Shown in pieces: positions 3,191 through 28,897 of a DNA stretch of 28,897 nt (within the stretch, counting starts at the first letter, position 1; every line of letters begins with the position of its first letter). This DNA comes from a virus. The DNA is taken from positions 1-28,897 of the IMG/VR virus record IMGVR_UViG_3300030060_002610, one strand, 5' to 3'. The position numbers and the translations under genes were made by a program. A model generated the notes under the pieces. That model had not been told where the DNA came from. It saw nothing but the letters and a program-made list of their open reading frames with translations, and searched no databases.

Positions 3191-3204
3191 ACGATTGTCA
3201 TATC

Positions 3205-3220
3205 GGCAGGGGGTCCTGCC
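3205..3220 (+). promoter_or_regulatory. 5'-leader hairpin of rightward transcript
   Basis: GGCAGG at 3205-3210 pairs perfectly with CCTGCC at 3215-3220 around a GGGT loop. It starts about 8 bases after the predicted transcription start and ends before the GGGGAGG ribosome site at 3231-3237. It could stabilise the mRNA 5' end. Confidence 0.5.
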
Positions 3221-3242
3221 AGCAACCAAGGGGAGGTACCAA

Positions 3243-3647
3243 ATGCACTACTGCTACAACACAGGCGGCCAAGAGGCGCACAGATCACTCAAGGGTGGTT
3301 ACTGCGGCGTCAGGGCTCTAGTCATTGCACATCCAGACTTGCAATGGCCAGAGGCCGAGGCATGGCTCAAGTCCTACACCCAGCGCGGCAAGGCGGGTAA
3401 CCGCAAGCTCTGCAAGGGTATCTACAAAGAGGACTACAGCGCCGCCTTAGCAGACCTCGGTTGGGTATGGTGCCAAGCACCTACCTTCACAGGCCGCAAG
3501 GCCAGAGCCGCCGACCTCGCAGACGAAGGCATAGTCATCGCTCGGCAGGCCGGTCACTACACCGCAGTGGTAGATGGCGTCATCAACGACATCTGGGATT
3601 GCTCACACAAGATGGTGTACGGCTTCTGGCGCTACGAGCACGGCTAA
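3243..3647 (+). CDS. Papain-like Cys-His protein (putative cysteine peptidase/transglutaminase fold)
   Basis: The 134-residue protein shows the signature of compact papain-like enzymes. A nucleophile-type Cys stands at the head of a helix (GGYCGVRALVIA, Cys21), and a C-terminal block GHYTAVVDGVINDIWD supplies His105 and an acidic partner, Asp116 or Asp119. The block ends with the GFWRY strand. Similar small phage proteins exist, but substrates are unknown. The ATG at 3243 is chosen because a strong GGGGAGG lies 5 bases upstream and because the longer frame, from a TTG at 3195, would begin before the predicted transcript does. It is the first gene of the rightward operon, so it may be made early and act on host proteins, which is inference. 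Confidence 0.7.
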   Translation: MHYCYNTGGQEAHRSLKGGYCGVRALVIAHPDLQWPEAEAWLKSYTQRGKAGNRKLCKGIYKEDYSAALADLGWVWCQAPTFTGRKARAADLADEGIVIARQAGHYTAVVDGVINDIWDCSHKMVYGFWRYEHG

Positions 3648-7195: not shown

Positions 7196-8155
7196 TTAAC
7201 TTACGTCAGCAACTACGCCGTGTGCGGCTTCGTTGTCTACTTGCAACCCGTACTCGACAGAAATCAAGCGGCGCTCTGCGTGACCGGTGCGCGCCAGTTC
7301 TTTCTGGTTTGTCTGGGTAAGGAAGGCCATACGCGCGTAGTTCGGGTCGAGAACCAGAACATCTCGGGCGCGGCTCAAGCGTGACGGAACGATCTGCAAC
7401 TCACCAAAGTCAGACACATAAATGTCGATAGCGGTGGTCAGCTTACCGTCAGTAATGTCCTTAAACTTCGTTGCGTTGCCAGTGAACGCAGATATAAGTT
7501 GCTTCTGCGCTGATCCACAAATTACAACGCTAGGCTCTGCACCAGCAGTCCAGCAGTTTGCAATCACAGACTTAAACAGAGTTTCTGTCAGCGTTCTCTG
7601 TGTGCCGTCAGTAGCGGCGGCATTAACAAAACCCGCTGTGCCTGATCCTGATGTGGTTCCGTCTGCACCATCACTAGCGCGGTCGGCATTTGTGCGCAGA
7701 AACGCTGGCAGGCCAGCAGTCTGTCGTGCAGTGCCTGATGCCCCAGCTGATGCCGCGACATTGTCACAGATCATTTTTTCCATATCGCGCTTTAGCTCTT
7801 TGAGCTTATACGCAATCTGCTTCGCAGTTGTCTGCGCGTCAGCCGCACCCTTTACGGAGTTAGCTGTGTCAGACACTTCCACTACCTTATCGGAAATCTG
7901 CGAATAGTTTTGCTGTCGCACCGCATTGGTTGGCGTGTCATTTGATGGGGCGGCCTCGCCCTCAATCACGCGGTTATCACCCGCCGCCGCCAAGTCTACT
8001 ACACCCCACTCAAACAAAGTGTTAGTAATGTTCTTGCGACCAATGGCAGACATGACCGGAGTTTCGGTCGGTGAAATCGAAATTAACGCGTCCTGCAAAT
8101 CCTCGCGGATCGTAGTAACGTCATACGTCTCATTTGTGTTAGCTGTAACGCCCAT
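7196..8155 (-). CDS. Major capsid protein, SU10 type (HK97 fold)
   Basis: This 319-residue protein matches the SU10 major head protein family (DUF5309). The N-terminus is NETYDVTTIREDLQDALISI, followed by SPTETPVMSAIGR and the TLFEWGVVDLAAAGDNRVIEG block. The central Gly/Thr/Ser-rich loop NADRASDGADGTTSGSG is part of the variable insertion, and PSVVICGSAQKQLISAFTG plus YVSDFGELQIVPSRL are typical of the P domain. About 415 copies build a T=7 shell in related podoviruses. It is preceded by the scaffold gene and followed immediately by a strong terminator, as expected for the most abundant late product. Confidence 0.95.
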   Translation of the reverse strand: MGVTANTNETYDVTTIREDLQDALISISPTETPVMSAIGRKNITNTLFEWGVVDLAAAGDNRVIEGEAAPSNDTPTNAVRQQNYSQISDKVVEVSDTANSVKGAADAQTTAKQIAYKLKELKRDMEKMICDNVAASAGASGTARQTAGLPAFLRTNADRASDGADGTTSGSGTAGFVNAAATDGTQRTLTETLFKSVIANCWTAGAEPSVVICGSAQKQLISAFTGNATKFKDITDGKLTTAIDIYVSDFGELQIVPSRLSRARDVLVLDPNYARMAFLTQTNQKELARTGHAERRLISVEYGLQVDNEAAHGVVADVS

Positions 8156-9391: not shown

Positions 9392-11494
9392 TTACTGGCG
9401 ATTCACATTTTGTGCGGCCTTAATCGCCGCCACATCTACTTGCGTGCCATATTGCCCTAGTACCTTAGCGGCATCAACCAGTAAATCTTGGTCCAGCTTG
9501 TCGCGAGCCAGATCATCATCCATAGCCATCTGCTGTTGGTCTATTGACAACTCTGCCATTTTTATTTGACCGTCTTGTTGCAGTTTAGCCATATCGGTTT
9601 GGGCCTTAGCCTGCGCTTTAATTTGCTCACCCTGCACTATAGCTTGCGCTTGGGCTTGCGCTGGGTTCCCTTGCTGTTGCGCCTGCGCCGCTTGCGCCTC
9701 TTGCGCCCTCTGCAATAACAGTTGCTCTGTCTGCGGGTCCATAGGCGTGAAGTGCCTGTCGGCGTTGCGTATGCCTGCTAACGCTAACATATCGGCTAGG
9801 GTATTGCGTATTTGGGTTAAGGTTACAAGACCATTCTGTGGCCCGTAGCCCTGCATTATTTGCATCTGGAATTGTAGCGCCTGTTGTAGCAAAGCCATCT
9901 TCTGGTCATCTTTACCAGTACCCAGACCGACATTTACCGAGACATCCATGCTTGCGTTCCAGACACGCGGGTCGACAGGCACATACTTACCATTTAGCCT
10001 AACTATTTCTTCCTCTGAAACATTTTTGATTACTTCTTTAAGCATCAGTGAGTACATGCGCTTCAGCCCGCCCTCTGCCAGATTACGAGCTATTACCTCT
10101 ACCTGACCGGCGGCGGCTTGCATTGTGGCGGCTACTGCCGTTGCAGTCGTGTTTTGTAACGCGTCAGGGTTTAGCCCCATGGAGGCCCGTGACACTCCCG
10201 TTTTAGCGTCTACTTGCTCATCGAGATACTGCAAGGCTGGCAGGGTTGTTCCAGCAATAAATGGAATCGCTAGGTCTTGTATCGCGCCTGCTTGCTTGAC
10301 GCGCACAATGGCTCCGATCTCATTATTGAGAACATCATCCATATTGACTAAATCTTCGATGACTTGCTGGCGTGGATTGTTGGTTAGAGCTACGTTGTCG
10401 AGAATGCCGCGCATTACACTAGTGCACACATCTTGATCGTTCAGAATCAGGTCAGCTTGTGATCTACCGAAAAAGGCGTGCGGCTCTGGGTCAACCTCGA
10501 AAATCGCAAAAGGCACTTCATCGCACGGCATATAGTCCAGCATCTTATAAGCGTTGCCTACACAAATAACTCGGTGCAATAAGGGAAACCCATTGCCATA
10601 AACGTCGATGTGCATATAGGCTTCTGTGACCAAGATTGGTCGCATGGCTGGGTCTTTGACATTATCGTCGTTGTAGTCGTTGTAATAACCTCTGCGGGCA
10701 AACTCCTCTTCTTCCGTCATCGTGTCTTGCTCGCCTACACCAGCAAAGTCGATAACGTCATCAAACTCGTAGCCCATCTCCATTAGGTCATAAACACGCA
10801 TCTCCCGCCTGTGGGCTACGCAGTACGCGTCGTCAATAGCCCTCGCATTACGGTCTACAAAAAATTCTTCTGGCGGCACGGATTCAACGCACAGCTTACC
10901 TTTACTGGCAACGCGAGCTATTTTTAGGCTGTGGTTAGATTCGCTAACCTCTACACCCATTTCGTCCATAGCCACAACGGTTTCTTTGCTATGCTCTAAA
11001 ACCTGTACGTCATCGTCTTGCGCAAGAATTGCAAACTCATCCTCTGTGAGGTCGTTGTAGGTATAAACTTGCGCCTCACTGTAATCCTCATAGTAAACTT
11101 TTACGATTCCGGTTTTTTTAACTAGCGCATCTTGAAATACATCGCTAAGTAGCTTGAAGCCATTTGCCTCATGGAATTTGTAATGAATATATTGCGTTGC
11201 CTGCTCTGCGACTGCTACATCCTCTGGGCCTCTTGGCACAAACTCTACTGGCTTGTCTGTAGACATAAACACGCGCATAAGAGATGGCTTGATGGCGCGT
11301 ATGTTATCTCTAACCTTAGTCGCGACTACGCGAGAGCGCCCTTCTTCAAAACCTAACTCTGTCAGGCCATCGAAATACTCTTGCGACTTAATGCGGGCAG
11401 GGGTGATTTCTGATTCAATAAAATCAACAGCATCCTCTATCGCTGTGCCAGCAATGCTCTCGATTTCGTCATCTGTAAGCGGTTTGAGCTTCAT
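9392..11494 (-). CDS. Portal protein, P22 type
   Basis: At 700 residues it fits the P22-like portal family in length. Features include an N-terminal helical part with TKVRDNIRAIKPSLMRVFMS, a wing region (EEFFVDRNARAIDDAYCVAH, EMGYEFDDVIDFAG) and the stem or crown block VPFAIFEVDPEPHAFFGRS. DLILNDQDVCTSVMRGILDN and NNPRQQVIEDLVNMDD follow, then a C-terminal Gln/Ala coiled coil (about 600-690). The dodecamer forms the DNA entry channel and binds TerL and the adaptor. The P22 type points to a short-tailed phage. It starts directly at the end of the preceding gene. Confidence 0.95.
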   Translation of the reverse strand: MKLKPLTDDEIESIAGTAIEDAVDFIESEITPARIKSQEYFDGLTELGFEEGRSRVVATKVRDNIRAIKPSLMRVFMSTDKPVEFVPRGPEDVAVAEQATQYIHYKFHEANGFKLLSDVFQDALVKKTGIVKVYYEDYSEAQVYTYNDLTEDEFAILAQDDDVQVLEHSKETVVAMDEMGVEVSESNHSLKIARVASKGKLCVESVPPEEFFVDRNARAIDDAYCVAHRREMRVYDLMEMGYEFDDVIDFAGVGEQDTMTEEEEFARRGYYNDYNDDNVKDPAMRPILVTEAYMHIDVYGNGFPLLHRVICVGNAYKMLDYMPCDEVPFAIFEVDPEPHAFFGRSQADLILNDQDVCTSVMRGILDNVALTNNPRQQVIEDLVNMDDVLNNEIGAIVRVKQAGAIQDLAIPFIAGTTLPALQYLDEQVDAKTGVSRASMGLNPDALQNTTATAVAATMQAAAGQVEVIARNLAEGGLKRMYSLMLKEVIKNVSEEEIVRLNGKYVPVDPRVWNASMDVSVNVGLGTGKDDQKMALLQQALQFQMQIMQGYGPQNGLVTLTQIRNTLADMLALAGIRNADRHFTPMDPQTEQLLLQRAQEAQAAQAQQQGNPAQAQAQAIVQGEQIKAQAKAQTDMAKLQQDGQIKMAELSIDQQQMAMDDDLARDKLDQDLLVDAAKVLGQYGTQVDVAAIKAAQNVNRQ

Positions 11495-25352: not shown

Positions 25353-25640
25353 TCACCACTTTACCTTGTTAGCCCAGAATGCGCGCGACATTTTGCCTTT
25401 CGCAATATTCTTTGCATGGCGGGCCTTAAAGCTCTTGCGCTTTTTCTTCATGGCCTCACTTTCACCAGCTTTCGGCTTGCCTGCTGTCTTTGCACCCTGC
25501 TGGCCGAACCTTAGGGTCTTTATCTTATCACCCTCCTTGGCAACTACAATATGCGAGCTTGTCGGGTGATTAGGGGTACGGCGGGGCTTGTTATATCCTG
25601 TTACGCCGGCTCGCGCCAGCCTTGGGTCTTTCTTGCTCAT
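25353..25640 (-). CDS. Basic protein of the DUF5872-like family (95 residues)
   Basis: The sequence MSKKDPRLARAGVTGYNKPR followed by RTPNHPTSSHIVVAKEGDK, then KTLRFGQQGAKTAG and KARHAKNIAKGKMSRAFWAN with final KVKW, matches a family in tailed phages and some giant viruses that I know as DUF5872. It is small and basic and lacks catalytic motifs that I can name. Its stable location after TerL in many phages suggests a role in packaging or virion DNA. It shares one base with the TerL stop. Confidence 0.82.
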   Translation of the reverse strand: MSKKDPRLARAGVTGYNKPRRTPNHPTSSHIVVAKEGDKIKTLRFGQQGAKTAGKPKAGESEAMKKKRKSFKARHAKNIAKGKMSRAFWANKVKW

Positions 25641-26926
25641 TACGCCAGCCCTTGTATGTTTCGCCTAATTGGCTCGTTCCAAGATTGGGTCATTGGCCGA
25701 TAGCCTACTGCTAAATACCGCATTGCATCTGCGCCGTGTGAGGACCAATCATGTAATGGCCTGCCGCGCCATGCTTTGCCCACTTCATCCCAATCGCGCC
25801 GATATTGCATGAGTGCATTTATACCACGATCACATTTCTCTTTGTCAAACCATGCCATGGGAATATTGCTACGCACTTGCTGTATGCCATCTTCGATTGA
25901 CAGCATTGGGCAGACCTCTATGTGGTGCAAGCCTAAGCCCTGTAACACCTCGAAACGGCTTTTGCCTGTGCCTAACTCTTTAACCTTAACGTCATGGGGC
26001 AAAATGTGGGTGATGTAATGGTAGCCCTTATCTGACAATACTTTTGCGTAATGGTCTAGCGCATACCCACTGGCTTCATAATAGTCTATGAGCCTTAGCT
26101 CTTTGCCCACGTATTGTGCGAACCAAATTGCCGTGCTGTCATCTATGCCAAGGTCCCATGCAGTGACTACGCCAGTATTTTTGTCGTATGGCACAGTTGT
26201 AATGCGATCTTGCTCTCTGGCCTCTGCCATTTCAACTGCATAATACGCACCTTCCCTGTATGTGAGGAAGTCGCCCTCCCAAATATGCTGGTAGGTTTCG
26301 GGCCTCTTTTGTAAATCTTCGCGCCTTTCACGCTCTAACACGACAGGAAAATATGGATTATCTCGCCAGTTCATCTCGGCAATCTTGCAAGACTCTGGCG
26401 TTTGCTCTCTGAATCTTTTGTGGGTAGCCGACTGTGTAGACTCTGGGTTATAGCTCACCCATACCTCTGAGCCTTCTTCACGCACCGTGGGGATTAGCTT
26501 GTCATATGCCTGACTGCTTACGTTTTCTGCCTCGTCTATCCAGCAGAGCAAGATGCGGCTTTTGGATTTGATGCTATCTAAGCTACGGCGCAGACCGCTA
26601 AACGTGAAATCAATATTGCCGTCCTTGCTTCTTATTAGGCGCTCACCTACTTCGTAGTAATCTGCCAGCCAATCATACTGTTGTATCGCGCCCTCTATCT
26701 CTGTAAAGCTAGATTCCCTCAGGGAGTTCATAAATTCGCGTGCGCATAGGATTTGGCCTTTCTTGCCTTCCTGACCCCACATATAACCTCGTACTGCGGC
26801 CATAATGGCGAATGATCGTGACTTGCCTGACCCCCTGCCGCCATACGCTACTCTGTAACGCGCCTCGCCGTTAAATAGCTCTACTAGCTTAGGCGGTAAC
26901 TCAATGACTCTCGTATCGCTCTGCAT
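25640..26926 (-). CDS. Terminase large subunit (TerL)
   Basis: The ATPase has a Walker A, YGGRGSGKS (about 29-36), and Walker B, ILLCWIDEAE with IDEAE at about 130-134. The motif III region is VWVSYNPES. The nuclease domain contains the acidic residue of TAWDLGIDDS (about 258), the RLIDYYEASG strand and the final HGADAMRYL Asp (about 400). It cuts concatemers and pumps DNA through the portal. The start is uncertain. An ATG at 26926 is chosen; earlier ATGs up to 26959 would extend it by 11 codons and overlap TerS by up to 59 bases. Only the ends differ, not the domains. Confidence 0.96.
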   Translation of the reverse strand: MQSDTRVIELPPKLVELFNGEARYRVAYGGRGSGKSRSFAIMAAVRGYMWGQEGKKGQILCAREFMNSLRESSFTEIEGAIQQYDWLADYYEVGERLIRSKDGNIDFTFSGLRRSLDSIKSKSRILLCWIDEAENVSSQAYDKLIPTVREEGSEVWVSYNPESTQSATHKRFREQTPESCKIAEMNWRDNPYFPVVLERERREDLQKRPETYQHIWEGDFLTYREGAYYAVEMAEAREQDRITTVPYDKNTGVVTAWDLGIDDSTAIWFAQYVGKELRLIDYYEASGYALDHYAKVLSDKGYHYITHILPHDVKVKELGTGKSRFEVLQGLGLHHIEVCPMLSIEDGIQQVRSNIPMAWFDKEKCDRGINALMQYRRDWDEVGKAWRGRPLHDWSSHGADAMRYLAVGYRPMTQSWNEPIRRNIQGLA

Positions 26927-27305
26927 CATCTTCTTCGTCATCGAAATCATCATCGCCATTATCGTGCTCGGGCAATCTTGCCGTCAGTTCTATGCGAGTC
27001 GGCGGTGCCTCTACTGGGTCGGGCGCTGTTTCTTTCCAGCCGCCTTGGGTTTTGAGATAGAAAATAGATGCGCCGAGACTACCATCCCGTGCCTGCCCTA
27101 ATAGACCTTGCGCTACAAATGCAATCGCCTTAGCTTTGCCTTTTTTATATGCGGCAGAAACTCCCTCATCACGATTCAGTATGTCCCTAAATGTTCTAGG
27201 TGCGATGCCGAAGTAATCAGCGATCTGTTGTTGGTTTAAGACAGCGGCCAGAGTTTCTACTTCTGCCACCTCTGCTTCTGTCATTTCTCGTCGGGGTCTA
27301 GCCAT
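26901..27305 (-). CDS. Terminase small subunit (TerS)
   Basis: The ATG at 27305 (MARPRREMTE) is used because an upstream open frame overlaps the methyltransferase stop. The 134-residue protein has a DNA-binding helix-turn-helix (about 25-55, LNQQQIADYFGIAPRTFRDI), a YKKGKAKAIAFVAQGLLGQA oligomerisation helix, FYLKTQGGWKE, and a very acidic C-terminus (DNGDDDFDDEEDDAERYE) suited to bind TerL. It recognises phage DNA and presents it to TerL, and it is encoded just upstream of TerL as usual. Confidence 0.88.
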   Translation of the reverse strand: MARPRREMTEAEVAEVETLAAVLNQQQIADYFGIAPRTFRDILNRDEGVSAAYKKGKAKAIAFVAQGLLGQARDGSLGASIFYLKTQGGWKETAPDPVEAPPTRIELTARLPEHDNGDDDFDDEEDDAERYESH

Positions 27306-27309
27306 AATG

Positions 27310-27972
27310 CTATTCCGGTTGCTCGTATACCCAGCCAGCAAACTCGCCAAATCTAAAGACCTCAGTGGCGCTTGCTAATCTATAATCAAAATATCTATGC
27401 GGCAATGGTCTTTGTACGCCAGCCAATGATAATTCTTTTGCCACGATCTCGTCATGTGGCGTTCCTGACGCGGCCTTGCCTGCTATGGTTGCTCTGTGCA
27501 TCACCGTAGACAAGTAGCCCCCTGTCATTTGTGTCTTGTCCACTATTATCAAACAGCCGCCTCTTTTAACCGCTTTGCGCAATTTCTCTATGAGTTTCTG
27601 CCGGTTGGCAGGGGAGAGAAACATCAGCACCAAAAAGCATACGGCTACATCGTACATTTCGTATTCTACGTCTTGCGCGTCTGCTATCTGGACTTCTGCC
27701 GCCCCTCTGTACAGCGTACTCATCTCTGGGCTGTTATCTATCGGCACTAGGGTTGCGCCTCTACCTTCTAAAACATCGCCGAGAGCCGCCTCTAAATTGC
27801 CTGTCGAACAGCCTATATCGTAAAGTAAACCGCCCTCAGGCAGATAATGCCGCACTATATGCGCGACTAGCCCTGTAGCCAAATCGTACCAAGGCAATTG
27901 CTGGCGAACGTGGTAATCGAATTCATCTGCCACGTGCTGGTTTTTGAATGTCCAATCGCTAGGTATGTCCAC
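27310..27972 (-). CDS. Class I SAM-dependent methyltransferase, CmoA-like
   Basis: The 220-residue protein has motif I, LLYDIGCSTGN (about 49-59), the acidic loop VPIDNSPEM (about 76-84), and ADAQDVEYEMYDVAVCFLVL with MFLSPANRQKLIEKL (about 97-131). The layout, including N-terminal VADEFDYHVRQQLPWYDLAT, resembles CmoA, the bacterial carboxy-SAM synthase, more than other small-molecule methyltransferases. Similar proteins occur in marine phages without known function. The C-terminal helix HRATIAGKAASG (about 159-170) holds an Arg that could correspond to CmoA's substrate residue, but the alignment is uncertain. It overlaps the C5 methyltransferase by 14 bases. Confidence 0.82.
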   Translation of the reverse strand: MDIPSDWTFKNQHVADEFDYHVRQQLPWYDLATGLVAHIVRHYLPEGGLLYDIGCSTGNLEAALGDVLEGRGATLVPIDNSPEMSTLYRGAAEVQIADAQDVEYEMYDVAVCFLVLMFLSPANRQKLIEKLRKAVKRGGCLIIVDKTQMTGGYLSTVMHRATIAGKAASGTPHDEIVAKELSLAGVQRPLPHRYFDYRLASATEVFRFGEFAGWVYEQPE

Positions 27973-28897
27973 CGATAAGCCCTTGCTGGTATATGTTATC
28001 TGCCACTGCGCGCATCATAAAAGGGGCGACCATTCTGCCTAGGCGCTCTGCTTGCTTTGCGTAGTTGCCGGTTAATATGTAGTCATCTGGCACGCTGAAA
28101 ATTCGTTTGAGCTCGGCAATAGTGAACGACCTATTGTCCCAGTGACATGGTTTAGCGCCACCGTTTGCCGCCGTAGCTAAATGGCATGGGCTCGGCTGAT
28201 GTGGCGAGCATTTCCATAAACCAAAGCGCACTTTGTCTTGCTGGCCTGCGGCGAGTCTGACCAGCCGCTCATATACTGCATATTTTGTTAGGTTTGTTTC
28301 TTCTGCGTCCTCTGTAGTAAACTCTAAACCAACGAATGCATCTTTTAACGGCACCTTATACTTAAATGGTTTAGGGTGCGTCTTGCCCTCTAGGTTTTCT
28401 CGCCATAGGTCTCGCCGTATGCCTACGAAAATAACTCTAGGCCGAGACTGCGGTACACCTAAATATTGCGCGTCTAATAGTCTGCACCTGACCTCATAGC
28501 CGCAGTCCGTGAGTCCTCGCAGTATCTCATTTAGGTAACCTTTAGCCTTGCCTTTGGCTAACCCACTTACATTTTCTGCTACGAATACTTTGCTTTGCAC
28601 GCCTTTGAGTAGGCGCATATACTCGAAAAACAAATCTTCCACGTTAGCCTGCGTGGTATCACTATAGGTTTTTGTCTTGCCCCAATTCTTTTCTGCCTTG
28701 CCCGCTGTACTAAAAGCAGAGCAGGGCGGCGACCCATCGAATATATCTAGCTCGCCCTCGGCTACAGACGCGGCGGCCAATATATCTTCTGCGCCAATAT
28801 CCCTTACATCGTTAGGTAACACGACCGTGTCAGGCCAATTAGCCGTATAGGTTTTTACGGCCTCGGGTATGAATTCATTGACGGCCAATACTTTGCC
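27959..28897 (-). CDS. C5-cytosine DNA methyltransferase, N-terminus cut by window
   Basis: The frame is open to the window end, so motif I and the true start lie outside. Visible motifs are DGSPPCSAFSTAGK (catalytic Cys in motif IV), VFVAENVSGL (ENV, motif VI), GVPQSRPRVIFVG (QxRxR, motif VIII) and RLGRMVAPFMMRAVADNIY (motifs IX-X). The enzyme methylates cytosine at C5 in a short site that cannot be told from here. No restriction endonuclease gene is visible. A likely role is protecting phage DNA against host restriction. The visible part is about 312 residues. Confidence 0.94.
   Translation of the reverse strand, partial: GKVLAVNEFIPEAVKTYTANWPDTVVLPNDVRDIGAEDILAAASVAEGELDIFDGSPPCSAFSTAGKAEKNWGKTKTYSDTTQANVEDLFFEYMRLLKGVQSKVFVAENVSGLAKGKAKGYLNEILRGLTDCGYEVRCRLLDAQYLGVPQSRPRVIFVGIRRDLWRENLEGKTHPKPFKYKVPLKDAFVGLEFTTEDAEETNLTKYAVYERLVRLAAGQQDKVRFGLWKCSPHQPSPCHLATAANGGAKPCHWDNRSFTIAELKRIFSVPDDYILTGNYAKQAERLGRMVAPFMMRAVADNIYQQGLIGGHT

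What the first reader, a model, noticed from the sequence alone, without database searches (positions are those of the whole stretch)
27310..28897. C5 methyltransferase paired with a CmoA-like enzyme: possible carboxymethylated DNA
The two genes overlap by 14 bases. CmoA makes carboxy-SAM, and an engineered C5 methyltransferase is known to use carboxy-SAM to form 5-carboxymethylcytosine. A natural phage pair could do the same to evade restriction. A simple methyl-mark plus an unrelated small-molecule methyltransferase is the cautious alternative.
Basis: inference. Interest (0 to 1): 0.65.

Follow-up and report, generated by a model that had tools for sequence, protein, structure and literature searches.

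The report
Phage carboxymethyl-cytosine DNA modification gene pair
This phage carries two neighbouring genes that very probably attach an acidic (carboxymethyl) group to cytosines in its DNA, a modification first reported as natural in another phage in December 2025, here in a group of phages that seems to lack the usual follow-up enzyme.

Summary
Window 27959-28897(-) is a cytosine-C5 transferase cut by the contig end. Window 27310-27972(-) is a CmoA homologue. They overlap by 14 bases. The transferase's best solved relative, by sequence and by fold, is SpCmoX (8yf3), the 5-carboxymethylcytosine-forming enzyme of Synechococcus phage S-B43 (Yang et al. 2025, PMC12783734). It keeps the diagnostic Arg (SpCmoX R350, Asn304 in ordinary M.HhaI) that binds the carboxylate of carboxy-SAM. 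Across phage C5 enzymes that I collected without reference to CmoA, this Arg and a CmoA gene go together: 25/26 Arg-type against 0/82 Asn/Met/other-type (90% dereplicated, p about 1e-23). Relatives, including Moraxella prophage Mcat8, repeat the order ParBc-CmoX-CmoA-TerS-TerL. A near-identical contig (L068) overlaps both ends of the window and supplies the missing genes. Neither they nor 15 lineage records hold the Asn-synthase-type ligase (CmoY) that converts 5cxmC to its glycyl amide in S-B43. I therefore predict bare 5cxmC as the final base in this clade; that step is inferred. No biochemistry was done and the target sequence is unknown. Verdict: a new member of a known kind, with a testable ligase-free twist.

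The parts
27310..27972 (-). cmoA: predicted carboxy-SAM synthase, 220 aa, GTG start
   Evidence: TIGR00740 E 8.8e-19; PDB 4gek E 1.5e-14; AlphaFold model pLDDT 90, best fold match 4iwn, E. coli CmoA with its SAM derivative, TM 0.84
27959..28897 (-). cmoX: predicted DNA cytosine C5-carboxymethyltransferase; 5' end (41 codons) cut by the contig end
   Evidence: PF00145 E 2.5e-41; 8yf3 (SpCmoX) E 1.1e-65 against 6e-13 for the next PDB hit; model of the full-length L068 copy matches 8yf3, E 2.4e-34, TM 0.83/0.88
27959..27972 (-). 14-base overlap of the two reading frames
   Evidence: 14 or 17 bases also in Mcat8, L011, L013, L117 and others
28034..28036 (-). Arg codon (AGA; residue 288 of the fragment, 329 of full-length L068), equivalent to SpCmoX Arg350 / M.HhaI Asn304, the carboxylate-binding residue
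   Evidence: alignment to 8yf3; invariant in A3; codon read
28721..28723 (-). catalytic Cys codon (TGC) of the SPPC motif, equivalent to SpCmoX Cys98 / M.HhaI Cys81
26901..27305 (-). terminase small subunit directly downstream of cmoA (context)
   Evidence: phrog_309 E 7e-14; same neighbour in 29 lineage loci
25640..26959 (-). terminase large subunit (context)
   Evidence: PF04466 E 5.9e-29

Best explanation
The two genes form a CmoA-CmoX DNA modification cassette. CmoA converts SAM, with host prephenate, into carboxy-SAM. CmoX, a C5 cytosine transferase whose cofactor pocket carries an Arg in place of the usual Asn, transfers the carboxymethyl group to C5 of cytosine at a short, unknown DNA motif, giving 5-carboxymethylcytosine (5cxmC). 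In this phage clade the cassette is ParBc-CmoX-CmoA next to the terminase genes and has no recognisable amide ligase, so 5cxmC is more likely than not the final base in the virion, where it would block host restriction enzymes. Shown here: homology, key residues, gene linkage, absence of the known ligase family. Inferred: both enzyme activities, the final base, protection from restriction, and the role of ParBc. The confidence given is for the CmoA-CmoX-5cxmC step; for 5cxmC being the final, unamidated base I would say about 0.6.
For: CmoX: nearest solved protein is SpCmoX 8yf3 by sequence (E 1.1e-65) and by fold (E 2.4e-34, next best 2e-21). The SPPC Cys and the R350-equivalent Arg are invariant in 24 relatives. 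The paper shows that R350 contacts the carboxylate, that wild-type SpCmoX accepts only Cx-SAM, and that its product blocks HhaI (PMC12783734). CmoA: family, fold and conserved cofactor residues. Linkage: among C5 enzymes collected without reference to CmoA, Arg-type with CmoA 25/26, Asn/Met/Leu/Ile/Asp-type 0/82 at 90% dereplication, p 1.2e-23; 16/16 against 0/37 at 70%; 6/6 against 0/15 at 50%. Whole-record search of 14 phages found CmoA in the 3 Arg-type records and in none of the other 11. Ligase absent from the window and from Mcat8 and from 15 lineage records. L068 overlaps both ends of the window at 95% identity and fills the gap.
Against: No biochemistry. Window CmoA is remote from proven enzymes (22% identical to SpCmoA) and below the curated CmoA cut-off. 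E. coli Arg199, which holds the product carboxylate (PMC3663124), is Glu here; but it is Glu in 86 of 103 phage homologues, including the active SpCmoA. A ligase of an unrelated family or from the host cannot be excluded. The ligase argument leans on L068, a 95%-identical relative, not on this exact genome.
Confidence: 0.88

Rival explanations
1. The C5 enzyme is an ordinary 5-methylcytosine methyltransferase and the neighbour is an unrelated small-molecule methyltransferase.
For: The generic Pfam hits of the neighbour are to methyltransferase domains; its CmoA score is below the curated cut-off.
Against: Arg instead of Asn in the methyl pocket, as in SpCmoX, which accepts only Cx-SAM; 0 of 82 non-Arg C5 enzymes have the neighbour against 25 of 26 Arg-type; CmoA is the best fold match.
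Confidence: 0.04
2. 5cxmC is only an intermediate: a host enzyme or a phage ligase of an unrecognised family, possibly the ParBc partner, derivatises it further. (This rival accepts CmoA and CmoX and disputes only the end product.)
For: In S-B43 only the glycyl amide, not free 5cxmC, was found in virion DNA; a relative (L014) carries a CmoY-type ligase between ParBc and CmoX; ParBc adjoins CmoX in 42 of 44 loci.
Against: No PF00733 ligase in the window, Mcat8 or 14 other lineage records; no other recurrent gene in the neighbourhood besides ParBc and terminase.
Confidence: 0.3
3. CmoA acts apart from CmoX, for example to alter host tRNA or to drain SAM, and the pairing is incidental.
For: CmoA's ancestral role is tRNA wobble modification; the paper raises SAM depletion as a possibility.
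Against: Overlapping frames, the Arg-to-CmoA association, and no recurrent CmoB-like neighbour in the cassettes.
Confidence: 0.03

Closest known systems
CmoA-CmoX(-CmoY) system of Synechococcus phage S-B43 (Yang et al. 2025, PMC12783734; PDB 8yf3)
   Same: Same two enzymes, same catalytic Cys and carboxylate-binding Arg, neighbouring genes, same predicted product 5cxmC.
   Different: S-B43 also encodes CmoY, which converts 5cxmC to its glycyl amide; the window clade has no such ligase and instead an adjacent ParBc gene. CmoX is about 40% identical, CmoA 22%.
Moraxella catarrhalis prophage Mcat8 (KR093632)
   Same: Same ParBc-CmoX-CmoA-TerS-TerL order with a 14-base CmoX/CmoA overlap; CmoX 59%, CmoA 46% identical.
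   Different: A prophage classified as siphovirus-type (PMC4619438); these genes are annotated only as hypothetical proteins.
E. coli CmoA (tRNA cmo5U34 pathway; PDB 4gek, 4iwn)
   Same: Fold and most cofactor residues (Tyr39, Asp62, Gly64, Asp89, Asn90, Lys185, Lys198).
   Different: Arg199, which binds the product carboxylate, is Glu; the C-terminal part is shorter; the partner is a DNA enzyme, not CmoB.
Engineered M.MpeI N374K carboxymethyltransferase
   Same: A basic residue in the pocket of a C5 methyltransferase allows carboxy-SAM use (as described in PMC12783734).
   Different: Man-made, Lys rather than Arg, CG motif.
M.HhaI and other 5mC methyltransferases
   Same: Overall C5-transferase fold and motifs.
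   Different: Asn304 in the methyl pocket instead of Arg; the Asn-type phage enzymes collected here have no linked CmoA.

Membership tests
CmoX (DNA cytosine C5-carboxymethyltransferase) | C5 methyltransferase fold with SPPC catalytic motif | tested here: met
   PF00145 E 2.5e-41; SPPC invariant; fold match 8yf3
CmoX (DNA cytosine C5-carboxymethyltransferase) | Arg equivalent to SpCmoX R350 (HhaI Asn304) | tested here: met
   alignment to 8yf3, codon 28034-28036, invariant in A3
CmoX (DNA cytosine C5-carboxymethyltransferase) | CmoA encoded in the same genome | tested here: met
   adjacent gene 27310-27972
CmoX (DNA cytosine C5-carboxymethyltransferase) | transfers carboxymethyl from carboxy-SAM to cytosine in DNA | not testable with these tools
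   needs expression and mass spectrometry
CmoA (carboxy-SAM synthase) | sequence and fold of the CmoA family | tested here: met
   TIGR00740 is the best NCBIfam hit; 4iwn is the best fold match
CmoA (carboxy-SAM synthase) | score above the curated TIGR00740 cut-off (193.3 bits) | tested here: not met
   68 bits; proven phage SpCmoA also fails with 115.6 bits, as do the four other phage homologues tested, so the cut-off is set for the bacterial tRNA enzyme
CmoA (carboxy-SAM synthase) | Arg199 that binds the product carboxylate (E. coli) | tested here: not met
   Glu180 here; Glu in 86 of 103 phage homologues including active SpCmoA, so not decisive for the phage branch
CmoA (carboxy-SAM synthase) | makes carboxy-SAM from SAM and prephenate | not testable with these tools
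   needs an enzyme assay
Complete CmoA-CmoX-CmoY hypermodification system | CmoY amide ligase (Asn-synthase family) | tested here: not met
   no PF00733 in the window, L068, Mcat8 and 13 other lineage records
Ordinary 5mC methyltransferase | Asn at the HhaI 304 position | tested here: not met
   Arg

The most novel reading that the evidence does not exclude
In this clade the ParBc protein is a functional third member of the cassette: an NTP-using partner (compare DpdB, a ParB-like ATPase of the 7-deazaguanine DNA system, PMC12839542) that drives CmoX or activates the carboxylate of 5cxmC, so that the phage carries either bare 5cxmC or a new derivative made without an Asn-synthase-type ligase.
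Probability: 0.15. Interest if true: 0.65.

Novelty: new member of a known kind. Interest (0 to 1): 0.42.

Why it matters
It extends a DNA modification reported in December 2025 to a phage clade with a minimal three-gene cassette that includes a Moraxella prophage. In the one native phage studied, 5cxmC was found only as a glycyl amide. A ligase-free clade makes it testable whether an acidic, unamidated base can be the final form in a virion and whether that suffices against restriction. The Arg/CmoA association supports a sequence rule for telling carboxymethyl- from methyltransferases.

Tried and rejected
A scan of viral contigs with a broad C5 alignment failed for lack of a conserved stretch; I replaced it with four single-protein scans. 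A genome-contig scan with CmoX found no bacterial relative, and a megablast of the window against phages found none, so the host stays unknown. Arg199 conservation was tried as a CmoA test and dropped, because it fails for the proven SpCmoA too. Met-type C5 enzymes were checked for a partner gene that would suggest another SAM analogue; none recurs in most of them. Neighbourhood clustering for a substitute ligase found only ParBc and terminase genes as common neighbours.

Full report
Observation. The minus strand at the right end of the window carries two overlapping genes. The downstream one, 27310-27972, encodes 220 aa; the upstream one, 27959-28897, runs off the contig end with 312 aa visible. 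The overlap is 14 bases. The record is an IMG/VR fragment that consists of the window alone. A second contig, L068 (IMGVR_UViG_3300030060_001890, 7757 bases), matches the window at 95.4% over 1-1406 and at 95.3% over 27773-28897, in an order that joins the two ends of the window. It supplies about 5.2 kb that the window lacks, including a full-length 353-aa C5 enzyme and, just upstream, a ParB-N-domain protein of 164 aa. The genome of this virus group is therefore about 34 kb (inference from that overlap).

What the C5 enzyme is. Pfam gives DNA_methylase. In the PDB, the first hit is 8yf3, SpCmoX of Synechococcus phage S-B43, at E 1.1e-65; the second, M.HaeIII, is at 6e-13. An AlphaFold model of the full-length copy (pLDDT 90) again has 8yf3 as best match (E 2.4e-34, TM 0.83/0.88), well ahead of all ordinary methyltransferases. 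Yang et al. (PMC12783734) showed that SpCmoX makes 5-carboxymethylcytosine from carboxy-SAM, that Arg350, in place of M.HhaI Asn304, contacts the carboxylate, that the wild type accepts only carboxy-SAM, and that the R350N mutant accepts neither donor. The window protein has Arg at this position (codon 28034-28036) and the catalytic Cys (codon 28721-28723); both are invariant in 24 relatives.

What the partner is. It scores best with the CmoA models of NCBIfam, below the curated cut-off. The proven S-B43 CmoA is also below it. Its first PDB relative by sequence is E. coli CmoA. The AlphaFold model (pLDDT 90) has E. coli CmoA with its SAM derivative as first match, TM 0.84-0.87; the next family, CysG(N-16)-type methyltransferases, follows closely in E-value but with TM about 0.78. 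Arg199, the residue that holds the product carboxylate in E. coli (PMC3663124), is Glu in the window and in 86 of 103 phage homologues, including the active SpCmoA, so it does not discriminate. My inference, not shown: since tight product binding is thought to limit E. coli CmoA (PMC4482062) and SpCmoA is ten times faster, loss of this Arg may be how phage CmoA releases its product.

Association test. I collected C5 enzymes by C5 queries only, from four different starting proteins plus the window and from annotated phages, typed the residue at the HhaI-304 position by alignment, and looked for CmoA. At 90% dereplication, Arg-type enzymes had CmoA in 25 of 26 cases (the exception, L155, is cut by a contig end) and Asn/Met/Leu/Ile/Asp-type in 0 of 82 (p 1.2e-23). 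At 70%: 16/16 against 0/37. At 50%: 6/6 against 0/15. Limits: most contigs were searched only in their flanks (up to 10 kb), two of the starting proteins were themselves Arg-type, a few Gly-type enzymes also have CmoA (left out of the Fisher table), and related sequences are not fully independent even after dereplication.

Clade and ligase. In 44 loci of the window lineage the conserved neighbours are ParBc (42 loci), CmoX, CmoA, then terminase genes. Mcat8 has the same order and a 14-base overlap. The CmoY family (PF00733) is missing from the window and Mcat8 and from 15 lineage records, including Mcat8 and four others of 33-36 kb. One relative, L014, has a CmoY-like gene between ParBc and CmoX, so ligases come and go. 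Pfam found no other ligase among the ten genes tested in L068.

Mechanism. Most likely: CmoA makes carboxy-SAM; CmoX flips out cytosine, attacks C6 with the SPPC Cys, and transfers carboxymethyl to C5; the Arg selects carboxy-SAM. The result, 5cxmC, would block restriction, as shown for HhaI with SpCmoX. The role of ParBc is open; ParB-like ATPases accompany other DNA modification systems such as Dpd (PMC12839542).

Verdict. The chemistry and system are already published, so this is a new member of a known kind. The ligase-free cassette is the part worth a bench test, because unamidated 5cxmC has not been reported as the final base of a native virion in the paper I could read; the paper counts fewer ligases (2251) than CmoX candidates (5615), so ligase-free contigs as such were visible to its authors.

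Noticed in passing
L005:5690-6688, L006:6497-7504, L158-L161 (Staphylococcus SPbeta-like and related phages): C5 enzymes with Gly at the R350/Asn304 position that nevertheless have CmoA nearby (and a CmoY-type ligase in L006, L160). The published search required R350 and would miss them; they may bind carboxy-SAM by another residue.
   Followed up: partly
L122:2881-4986 (Erwinia phage pEa_SNUABM_5): An Arg-type C5 enzyme of 701 aa is interrupted at its catalytic SPPC motif by an insert with Hint and intein-splicing domains; CmoA lies about 18 kb away.
   Followed up: partly
L123 and L175-L254: A large group of phage C5 enzymes has Met at the Asn304 position, no CmoA and no partner gene common to most of them.
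   Followed up: partly
phage CmoA alignment: E. coli Arg199, the product-carboxylate ligand, is replaced by Glu in 86 of 103 phage CmoA homologues; possibly linked to faster product release.
   Followed up: no
window 7196-8155 and 9392-11494: Major capsid and portal proteins match the SU10 families (PF17236, PF23899), suggesting a podovirus-type phage.
   Followed up: no
window 3195-3647: A 150-aa protein without a Pfam match, on the opposite strand to most genes; by eye it resembles a small cysteine peptidase (GGYCG ... GHYTAVVDG).
   Followed up: no
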